From: an uncultured Paracoccaceae bacterium
Lineage (GTDB): Bacteria; Pseudomonadota; Alphaproteobacteria; Rhodobacterales; Rhodobacteraceae
Direction: 5' to 3'
DNA length: 64,000 bases
Assembly (NCBI GenBank): GCA_913041145.1
Contig: CAJWHE010000001.1
Coordinates: 124,001 to 188,000 of the forward strand
The position numbers and the translations under genes are program-made. This document shows, one piece after another, positions 18,667 through 19,482 of this stretch. Position 1 is the stretch's first letter; every line of letters begins with the position of its first letter. The notes below the pieces were generated by a model. The model was not told the DNA's origin. It was given only the letters and a program-made list of their open reading frames with translations, and did no database searches.

Positions 18667-18694
18667 TTGACATTTAATGAGACGAAGGTATAAG
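18667..18694 (+). promoter_or_regulatory. Sigma-70 promoter of rpsD
   Basis: TTGACA at 18667-18672 and TATAAG at 18689-18694 are separated by 16 bases, giving one perfect and one five-of-six hexamer. Transcription should start near 18701, leaving a leader of about 108 bases before the GTG of rpsD. Confidence 0.75.
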
Positions 18695-18700
18695 CGCAAT

Positions 18701-18808
18701 TTGTTGGTGTTGGTGGACCCCGTAAGGGGATTCCTGTCGGAATTTTTCAGAGGACAACGCCCTTCACTAGGCTAAAAAATAGCCGTTATTTATGGAAGGA
18801 GATCAGCC
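18701..18808 (+). promoter_or_regulatory. Structured rpsD leader with three short hairpins
   Basis: Three perfect stem-loops follow the predicted start site. They are CCCC-GTAA-GGGG (18718-18729), ATTCC-TGTC-GGAAT (18730-18743) running into five T residues, and GGCTA-AAAAA-TAGCC (18770-18784) just before the ribosome binding site AAGGAG at 18796-18801. The first two stack directly and end like an attenuator. S4 is a known autoregulator in other bacteria, so a regulatory leader is plausible, but no known RNA family is recognised. Confidence 0.5.
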
Positions 18809-19429
18809 GTGACAAAACGCACGTCTGCCAAATATAAAATTGATCGAAGGATGGGAGAAAATATATGGGGCCGTCCAAAGTCACCAGTAAATAGAAGAGA
18901 ATATGGACCGGGCCAACATGGACAGAGGCGCAAAGGTAAGCTGTCTGATTTTGGTCTCCAATTAAGAGCAAAACAGAAACTTAAAGGTTATTACGGTGAT
19001 CTTACCGAAAAGCAGTTTCGTAGAATATTTAAAGAAGCAGAGCGAGTTAAAGGTGACACAGGTGAAAACCTTGTTGGATTACTTGAGAGGCGCTTGGATG
19101 CAGTGGCCTATAGGGCCAAATTTGTTCCTACTGTTTTTGCGGCCCGTCAGTTTGTGAACCATGGGCATCTGCTAGTAAATGGAAAACGTGTTAACATTCC
19201 TTCGTATACGGTAAAAGAGGGAGATATAATAGAAGTCAGGCCTCGTTCTAAGCAACTTGCAATAGTACTTGAATCTGCACAGTTACCAGAAAGAGAAGTG
19301 CCTGATTACATGGAAGTTGACCAAAGCAAGATGGTTGCTACTTTTGTGCGTACACCGGGGCTAGGAGATGTACCTTACCCTGTAATTATGGAGCCAAACC
19401 TAGTGATTGAGTATTATGCTCAAAACTAA
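18809..19429 (+). CDS. rpsD: 30S ribosomal protein S4
   Basis: Primary 16S rRNA-binding protein that nucleates 30S assembly. The 206-residue protein begins [20 protein letters not shown] and includes the S4-family segment [16 protein letters not shown]. The S4 RNA-binding domain lies at about residues 95-155 ([20 protein letters not shown], then [16 protein letters not shown]). The GTG start is supported by AAGGAG seven bases upstream. The gene is monocistronic, with its own promoter and leader and a strong terminator 23 bases after the stop. That fits separate control from the main ribosomal protein operons, as in many alphaproteobacteria. Confidence 0.98.
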
Positions 19430-19452
19430 TTGACAGAATTTTATTATATTTA

Positions 19453-19482
19453 AAGGCCGCTTAATTCCAGCGGCCTTTTTTT
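19453..19482 (+). terminator. Intrinsic terminator of rpsD
   Basis: AAGGCCGC (19453-19460) pairs perfectly with GCGGCCTT (19470-19477) across a 9-base loop. It is followed by an uninterrupted T run to 19482. It lies 23 bases after the rpsD stop codon and separates rpsD from the MFS gene. Confidence 0.93.

What the first reader, a model, noticed from the sequence alone, without database searches (positions are those of the whole stretch)
18701..18808. Structured leader of rpsD with stacked hairpins and an attenuator-like T run
A strong promoter (18667-18694) is followed by three perfect stem-loops. The second ends in five T residues, and the third lies just before the ribosome binding site. 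S4 is the autoregulator of its operon in other bacteria. Here rpsD is monocistronic, and the leader does not look like a known RNA family to me. It may be a new S4-responsive element or a short terminated RNA.
Basis: partly seen in the sequence, partly recalled or inferred. Interest (0 to 1): 0.5.

Follow-up and report, generated by a model that had tools for sequence, protein, structure and literature searches.

The report
Structured leader of the rpsD gene
The mRNA of the ribosomal protein S4 gene begins with a folded RNA element, shared across its bacterial family, that can hide the gene's own ribosome-binding site; it looks like a so far undescribed feedback switch for S4.

Summary
The rpsD leader is a conserved three-way-junction RNA: P1 GGUGUUG/CAACGCC, P2 GGN-CCCC-GNRA-GGGG-AU-NCC, P3 a variable hairpin. 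A fourth helix, P4, pairs CCUUC at the end of P1 with GAAGG of the Shine-Dalgarno (SD) sequence. In a 100-genome family sample the element was found in 98, each time directly before rpsD; in the other two the leader is not in the assembly. Covariation is strong: 10 of 17 pairs change on both sides, score 0.335 against 0.099 in shuffles. P4 covaries: 18 of 111 leaders carry U-A for C-G at pair 5, and 4 carry C-G for U-A at pair 4. Leaders in four other families keep the junction with a different P1 and P4. No attenuator is conserved. Rfam 15 has no match, and the S4-leader sources I could read list none for Alphaproteobacteria. Best reading: S4 binds the junction, clamps the SD helix and represses its own translation. 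S4 binding is inferred.

The parts
18667..18694 (+). sigma-70-like promoter TTGACA-16-TATAAG; transcript expected to start a few bases before P1
   Evidence: sequence; pattern kept in 98 of 114 relatives; start not mapped
18706..18712 (+). P1 5' strand GGUGUUG
   Evidence: covariation of P1 and replacement in other families
18715..18734 (+).
   Evidence: covariation
18740..18748 (+).
   Evidence: all three counted pairs covary, 100% of cells paired
18755..18761 (+). P1 3' strand CAACGCC
18761..18765 (+). P4 5' strand (anti-SD) CCUUC; its first C is also the last base of P1
   Evidence: covaries with the SD
   Evidence: sequence; the loop varies among relatives
18795..18799 (+). P4 3' strand GAAGG, inside the SD GGAAGGAG (18794-18801)
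18809..19429 (+). rpsD, ribosomal protein S4, 206 aa, GTG start
   Evidence: ORF; one S4 match in the own genome, relatives' S4 79-90% identical within the family lists
19452..19478 (+). terminator-like hairpin after rpsD, consistent with a single-gene transcript

Best explanation
The 5' leader of rpsD is a cis-regulatory RNA, a ribosomal-protein leader. Transcription starts a few bases before P1. The RNA folds into a three-way junction (P1, P2, P3) whose joining strands GUGG, CCUGUC and ARAGGA are nearly invariant. P4, made of CCUUC at the foot of P1 and GAAGG of the SD, abuts P1 and can stack on it. Shown here: the RNA structure, its link to rpsD and the SD-containing helix. Inferred: the transcript start, S4 as ligand and repression as the outcome.
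For: Structure: 97.1% of cells paired, 10 of 17 pairs with changes on both sides, covariation score 0.335 against a shuffled mean of 0.099 (0 of 500 as high) and 0.037-0.108 for slid controls. SD helix: 108 of 111 leaders with at least 5 contiguous pairs; mean 5.40 against 5.05 +/- 0.05 when SDs are swapped between leaders, 0 of 5000 as high. Linkage: 98 of 100 family genomes hit, 97 within 15-127 nt upstream of S4 on the same strand, the 98th running into rpsD at a contig end. One place only in the own genome. Same junction with other P1 and P4 sequences in four other families and L100. No constant reading frame and no conserved T run leave RNA structure at the SD as the conserved feature. 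S4 is a known autoregulator of rpsD in Bacillus and of the alpha operon in E. coli (PMC10931766, passages).
Against: No binding, expression or start-site data. In the window the SD helix is short (5 bp) and is absent from the minimum-free-energy fold: -24.7 kcal/mol for P1-P2-P3-P4 plus the loop hairpin against -29.3 for the MFE. The leader as a whole is no more stable than shuffles. I saw no clear P4 in L024, L029, L105, L149 and L150 (by eye), although P1-P3 are there. The swap control for P4 does not correct for relatedness. Resemblance to the S4 site of 16S rRNA could not be tested: no 16S was found in G000 or G190. The invariant CCU could also pair with the invariant AGG instead of P2's base.
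Confidence: 0.72

Rival explanations
1. The leader is a conserved translational control element, but the signal is not S4: another protein, a small RNA, temperature or ribosome availability opens the SD helix.
For: Nothing here shows S4 binding; no 16S mimicry could be tested; the P2 tetraloop is GNRA in general, so the GUAA that the Firmicutes S4 leader uses is not conserved.
Against: The element was found only before rpsD, apart from weak hits, rpsD stands alone in a one-gene unit in the window, and S4 is the established autoregulator in two other groups.
Confidence: 0.18
2. Transcription attenuator or short terminated leader RNA, as the reader also proposed: hairpin 2 plus the T run stops transcription before rpsD.
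For: Hairpin AUUCC-UGUC-GGAAU followed by U residues exists in the window.
Against: It can form in 3 of 118 leaders, all of one genus; TTTT lies inside the element in 4 of 114; it would disrupt the covarying P2 base and P3; the terminator scan did not report it.
Confidence: 0.03
3. A short upstream reading frame (GTG TTG GTG ... RGQRPS) whose translation controls rpsD.
For: The frame is open in the window (22 codons) and in many relatives.
Against: The spacer between the two conserved halves is 1, 2 or 0 modulo 3 in 46, 38 and 18 of 102 distinct leaders, so the second half is read in all three frames.
Confidence: 0.03
4. A DNA-level element, such as an operator made of repeats, that happens to look like an RNA.
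For: Very high sequence identity over the core within the family.
Against: It lies downstream of a conserved promoter; one P1 pair is U-G in 45 of 50 rows and P3 covaries despite variable loop length; one arm pairs with the SD.
Confidence: 0.02

Closest known systems
Bacillus / Firmicutes S4 leader of rpsD
   Same: Leader of a separately located rpsD, with S4 repressing its own translation through the untranslated leader and without a pseudoknot (PMC10931766, passages).
   Different: The Firmicutes leader has a conserved GUAA that imitates rRNA (PMC7247131, passages). Here the window has GUAA in the P2 loop but GCAA or GCGA dominate among relatives, and no Rfam model matches the window. I did not compare the two structures by model.
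E. coli alpha-operon S4 site (Rfam Alpha_RBS; family name recalled)
   Same: S4-related control at the ribosome-binding site of an S4 operon.
   Different: In E. coli the target is a pseudoknot before rpsM acting by entrapment (PMC10931766, passages); here a three-way junction before a single rpsD, with the SD in a simple helix. The scan of all Rfam families, which covers it, gave no match.
S4 leaders of Bacteroidia, Clostridia, Flavobacteria and Fusobacteriales (Eckert and Weinberg 2020)
   Same: Same kind of object: leaders found by comparative genomics with S4 as the likely ligand.
   Different: Other phyla and multi-gene operons (rpsD-rpoA-rplQ or rpsM-rpsK-rpsD-rpoA-rplQ); the table lists no S4 motif for Alphaproteobacteria (PMC7247131, parts 1-2 of 6). 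Structures not compared, the supplements being unavailable.

Membership tests
ribosomal-protein leader (as a kind) | RNA structure in the 5' leader supported by covariation | tested here: met
   (the latter on a model-fitted alignment)
ribosomal-protein leader (as a kind) | consistently upstream of an r-protein gene | tested here: met
   98 of 98 best hits in the family sample lie directly before rpsD
ribosomal-protein leader (as a kind) | a plausible way to block expression (SD masking or terminator) | tested here: met
   SD-containing helix P4 covaries; the effect on translation is not tested
ribosomal-protein leader (as a kind) | the r-protein binds the leader and represses its own synthesis | not testable with these tools
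   needs binding and reporter experiments
Firmicutes S4 leader | conserved GUAA that imitates rRNA | tested here: not met
   the only GUAA seen, in the P2 loop, is GCAA or GCGA in most relatives; no other GUAA was systematically sought
Firmicutes S4 leader | match to its covariance model, if in Rfam | tested here: not met
   no Rfam match at gathering score, and none relevant at E <= 10
E. coli alpha-operon S4 site | pseudoknot at the start of the operon's first gene, match to the Rfam model | tested here: not met
   no Rfam match; the conserved pairs are nested
transcription attenuator | conserved terminator hairpin with U run before the gene | tested here: not met
leader peptide / uORF | one conserved reading frame | tested here: not met

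The most novel reading that the evidence does not exclude
Alphaproteobacteria carry one old S4-sensing junction (GUGG - P2 - CCnGUC - P3) that accompanied the move of rpsD out of the alpha operon, and each lineage rebuilt the closing helix around it: GGUGUUG/CAACGCC in Rhodobacteraceae, ACGCACCC/GGGCGCGU in several other families, UCCCGR/YCGGGA in yet others. It would be a class-wide feedback switch absent from Rfam.
Probability: 0.3. Interest if true: 0.72.

Novelty: new variant of a known kind. Interest (0 to 1): 0.6.

Why it matters
S4 nucleates 30S assembly, and its known feedback sites in Gammaproteobacteria and Firmicutes are described as structurally unrelated (PMC7247131, passages). 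A 2024 review notes that alphaproteobacterial rpsD lies away from the alpha operon and calls the reason for this diversity of arrangement an open question (PMC10931766, passages). A leader of this kind would explain how the separated gene is kept in balance, would add another independent RNA solution for binding S4, and is directly testable in cultured genera such as Paracoccus and Cereibacter, where it is present.

Tried and rejected
Single-sequence folding gave no signal (z -0.22) and Rfam gave none (the best weak hits, a CRISPR repeat at E 0.2 and sRNA P14 at E 8.3, are chance-level). The uORF was rejected on frame, the attenuator on conservation. A first P4 count contained two misplaced rows (L024, L029) and the duplicates L042 and L097; it was redone. 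The set of 118 contained some non-members (for example L163, L196, L224); the clean set of 114 is. Two attempts to get 16S rRNA (G000, G190) for a mimicry test found none. Of the 18 class genomes with a match at E <= 0.1, 12 (L117-L128, E 8e-5 to 0.099 per genome) have no S4 in the fetched stretch; such numbers are expected by chance in 385 genomes, apart perhaps from L117. Three weak second hits in the family sample (G477, G015, G467) were not pursued beyond reading one (L228). Paper searches for an existing description; none of the titles or abstract openings listed names an alphaproteobacterial S4 leader. What I saw of papers: PMC7247131 parts 1-2 of 6 and passages; PMC10931766 passages; PMC2704228 passages; all others listing only.

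Full report
What is in the window. rpsD (S4, 206 aa, GTG start) lies at 18809-19429, followed by a terminator-like hairpin at 19452-19478 and preceded by TTGACA-16-TATAAG at 18667-18694. The single sequence therefore cannot decide the matter.

Relatives. Of these 110 leaders, 107 contain the same core by a fuzzy two-anchor search, 105 of them distinct; the other three are L029, L100 and L105. L042 and L097 repeat L008 and L027. The consensus is UUGGUGUUGGUGG-N-CCCC-GNRA-GGGG-AUNCCUGUC-[variable hairpin]-ARAGGACAACGCCCUUC ... GAAGGAGAUCAGCC-GUG. Conservation starts at P1: the majority-base fraction is 0.33-0.41 from -90 to -21, 0.48 from -20 to -11, 0.68 from -10 to -1, and 0.99 over the P1 strand (114 leaders). 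blastn against plasmid records finds the stretch in five Paracoccus records, in one of which rpsD is annotated directly after it; that gene table holds no RNA features.

Structure. For the covariation test I chose 50 leaders: 43 of the 51 with a short P3, plus seven with longer P3 or divergent sequence. A 17-pair three-way junction has 97.1% of cells paired, 10 pairs with changes on both sides, and a covariation score of 0.335 (shuffled mean 0.099, 0 of 500 as high; slid controls 0.037-0.108). P1 is GGUGUUG/CAACGCC, P2 is GG N CCCC-GNRA-GGGG AU N CC, P3 a hairpin of variable length. The weakest pair is N-N at the base of P2, unpaired in 15 of 50. The purines just inside P3's joining strands (after UGUC and before AGGA) are G/A in 44, A/G in 29, G/G in 23, A/A in 6 and other in 3 of 105, as a non-canonical pair might be. 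The invariant CCU could instead pair with the invariant AGG, as in the window's MFE; the changes at the base of P2 favour P2.

SD helix. The bases after P1 (CCUUC) are complementary to the SD (GAAGG). Of 114 leaders (duplicates and L024, L029, L100, L105 left out beforehand, L149-L154 and L156-L159 added), 111 could be scored; 108 have at least 5 contiguous pairs. The mean of 5.40 exceeds 5.05 +/- 0.05 from swapping SDs between leaders (0 of 5000 as high). Pair 5 is C-G in 90, U-A in 18, other in 3; pair 4 is U-A in 106, C-G in 4, other in 1. The swap keeps composition but not relatedness. The three not scored are L149, L150 and L152; by eye L152 can pair UCUUUCU with AGAAAGG, the others show no clear P4. 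Of the four left out, L100 has a P4 and L024, L029 and L105 show none by eye. The P4 loop varies widely (gap 12-123 nt, without its two misplaced rows). In the window P4 is 5 bp and not part of the MFE (-24.7 against -29.3 kcal/mol).

Linkage. The covariance model R1 finds one place in the own genome, before rpsD. In 100 genomes of the family it hits 98 (91 of 91 good-quality ones), and S4 is found in 99. 97 hits lie 15-127 nt upstream of S4 on the same strand, median 35. G447's hit runs into rpsD at a contig end; G483's contig ends within the SD; G454 has neither. At least 19 of these genomes contributed rows to R1, so this shows linkage and generality rather than independent discovery. Family members not used in the model score well: L149, L150, L152-L154 at E 4e-22 to 3e-14, L151 at 2e-22. 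In 385 genomes of the class, 18 match at E <= 0.1: all 5 of the family, one in another family with S4 beside it (L116), and 12 without S4 nearby.

Other families. I read by eye the rpsD leaders of about 84 genomes of other families. L116, L129 (same place as L170), L168, L171, L176, L192 and L196 (seven genomes, four unnamed families), and L100, show a second form. The junction strands are the same or nearly so (GUGG, CCUGUC, AGAGGA), but P1 is ACGCACCC/GGGCGCGU or similar with one mismatch or bulge (two mismatches in L100), and the bases after it pair with the SD as GUUCCUC/GAGGAAC, GUUUCCU/AGGAAAC or similar, 5-7 bp in all eight. R1 did not find six of these seven in the whole-genome search at E <= 0.1, but scores them at E 6e-6 to 0.013 in the fetched stretches with filters off, so its range is narrow. 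A model-fitted alignment of 20 divergent members, which leans towards the structure, has 14 of 17 pairs with double changes and a score of 0.618 against 0.230. L166 and L172 have a possible P1 but I found no P4, and R1 does not match L172. L165, of the same family as L192 and L196, did not show the element. Most of the other leaders read do not show this form.

A third form fits 15 of 96 leaders (10 of the 96 being of the window's family): UCCCGR - GAANGNGG - P2 - CCnGnC - P3 - GGnCUA - YCGGGACA. Its last P1 pair is A-U in 9 and G-C in 6. GUGG ... CC.GUC recalls the first junction, but homology is not established.

Mechanism. Shown: a conserved, covarying RNA in the leader of rpsD whose fourth helix contains the SD and abuts P1. 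Inferred: that the transcript starts just before P1 (promoter a median of 11 nt away, with a minority at 34-40), that S4 is the ligand, as in Bacillus and E. coli, and that binding closes the SD helix.

Novelty. Rfam 15 has no family for it. The table of Eckert and Weinberg lists S4 leaders for four lineages, none alphaproteobacterial. The passages I saw of the 2024 review mention no alphaproteobacterial S4 site. Eight paper searches gave no description (listed under Tried and rejected). It is filed as a new structural class of a known kind of regulator.

Noticed in passing
L137, L140, L142, L194, L199, L201, L205, L208, L213, L216-L221 (upstream of rpsD): A different rpsD leader form in other alphaproteobacterial families, UUCCCGR-GAANGNGG-P2-CCnGnC-P3-GGnCUA-YCGGGACA, with a covarying closing helix; possibly another, perhaps related, S4 leader.
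   Followed up: partly
L009, L010, L025, L053, L061, L070, L090, L092, L094 (ending 34-39 bases before the rpsD start): A palindromic repeat like CCGAAAAGTGGGAACCGGTTTTCGG sits inside the P4 loop in nine leaders, while the SD pairing is kept: the loop seems to tolerate insertion of a dispersed repeat.
   Followed up: partly
window 18798-18806 and relatives: The spacer between SD and start codon is conserved beyond need: GGAGATCAG in 88 of 114 leaders, GGA[GT]A[TAC]CAG in 108 of 114. Role unknown.
   Followed up: no
L160, L173, L174, L188 (upstream of rpsD): Yet another shared rpsD leader form, with CCCGCCGUUGnAAUCGC followed by GCCGGnCnGnnUC, read by eye (function not examined).
   Followed up: no
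L206, L211, L212 (upstream of rpsD): Leaders with CAGCCGGGACA before the SD, perhaps a variant of the YCGGGACA form.
   Followed up: no
G000, G190: No 16S rRNA was found in the own genome or in a one-contig complete relative with the Rfam SSU model, although the same search rang in 9 of 14 control genomes; possibly withheld or missing sequence.
   Followed up: no
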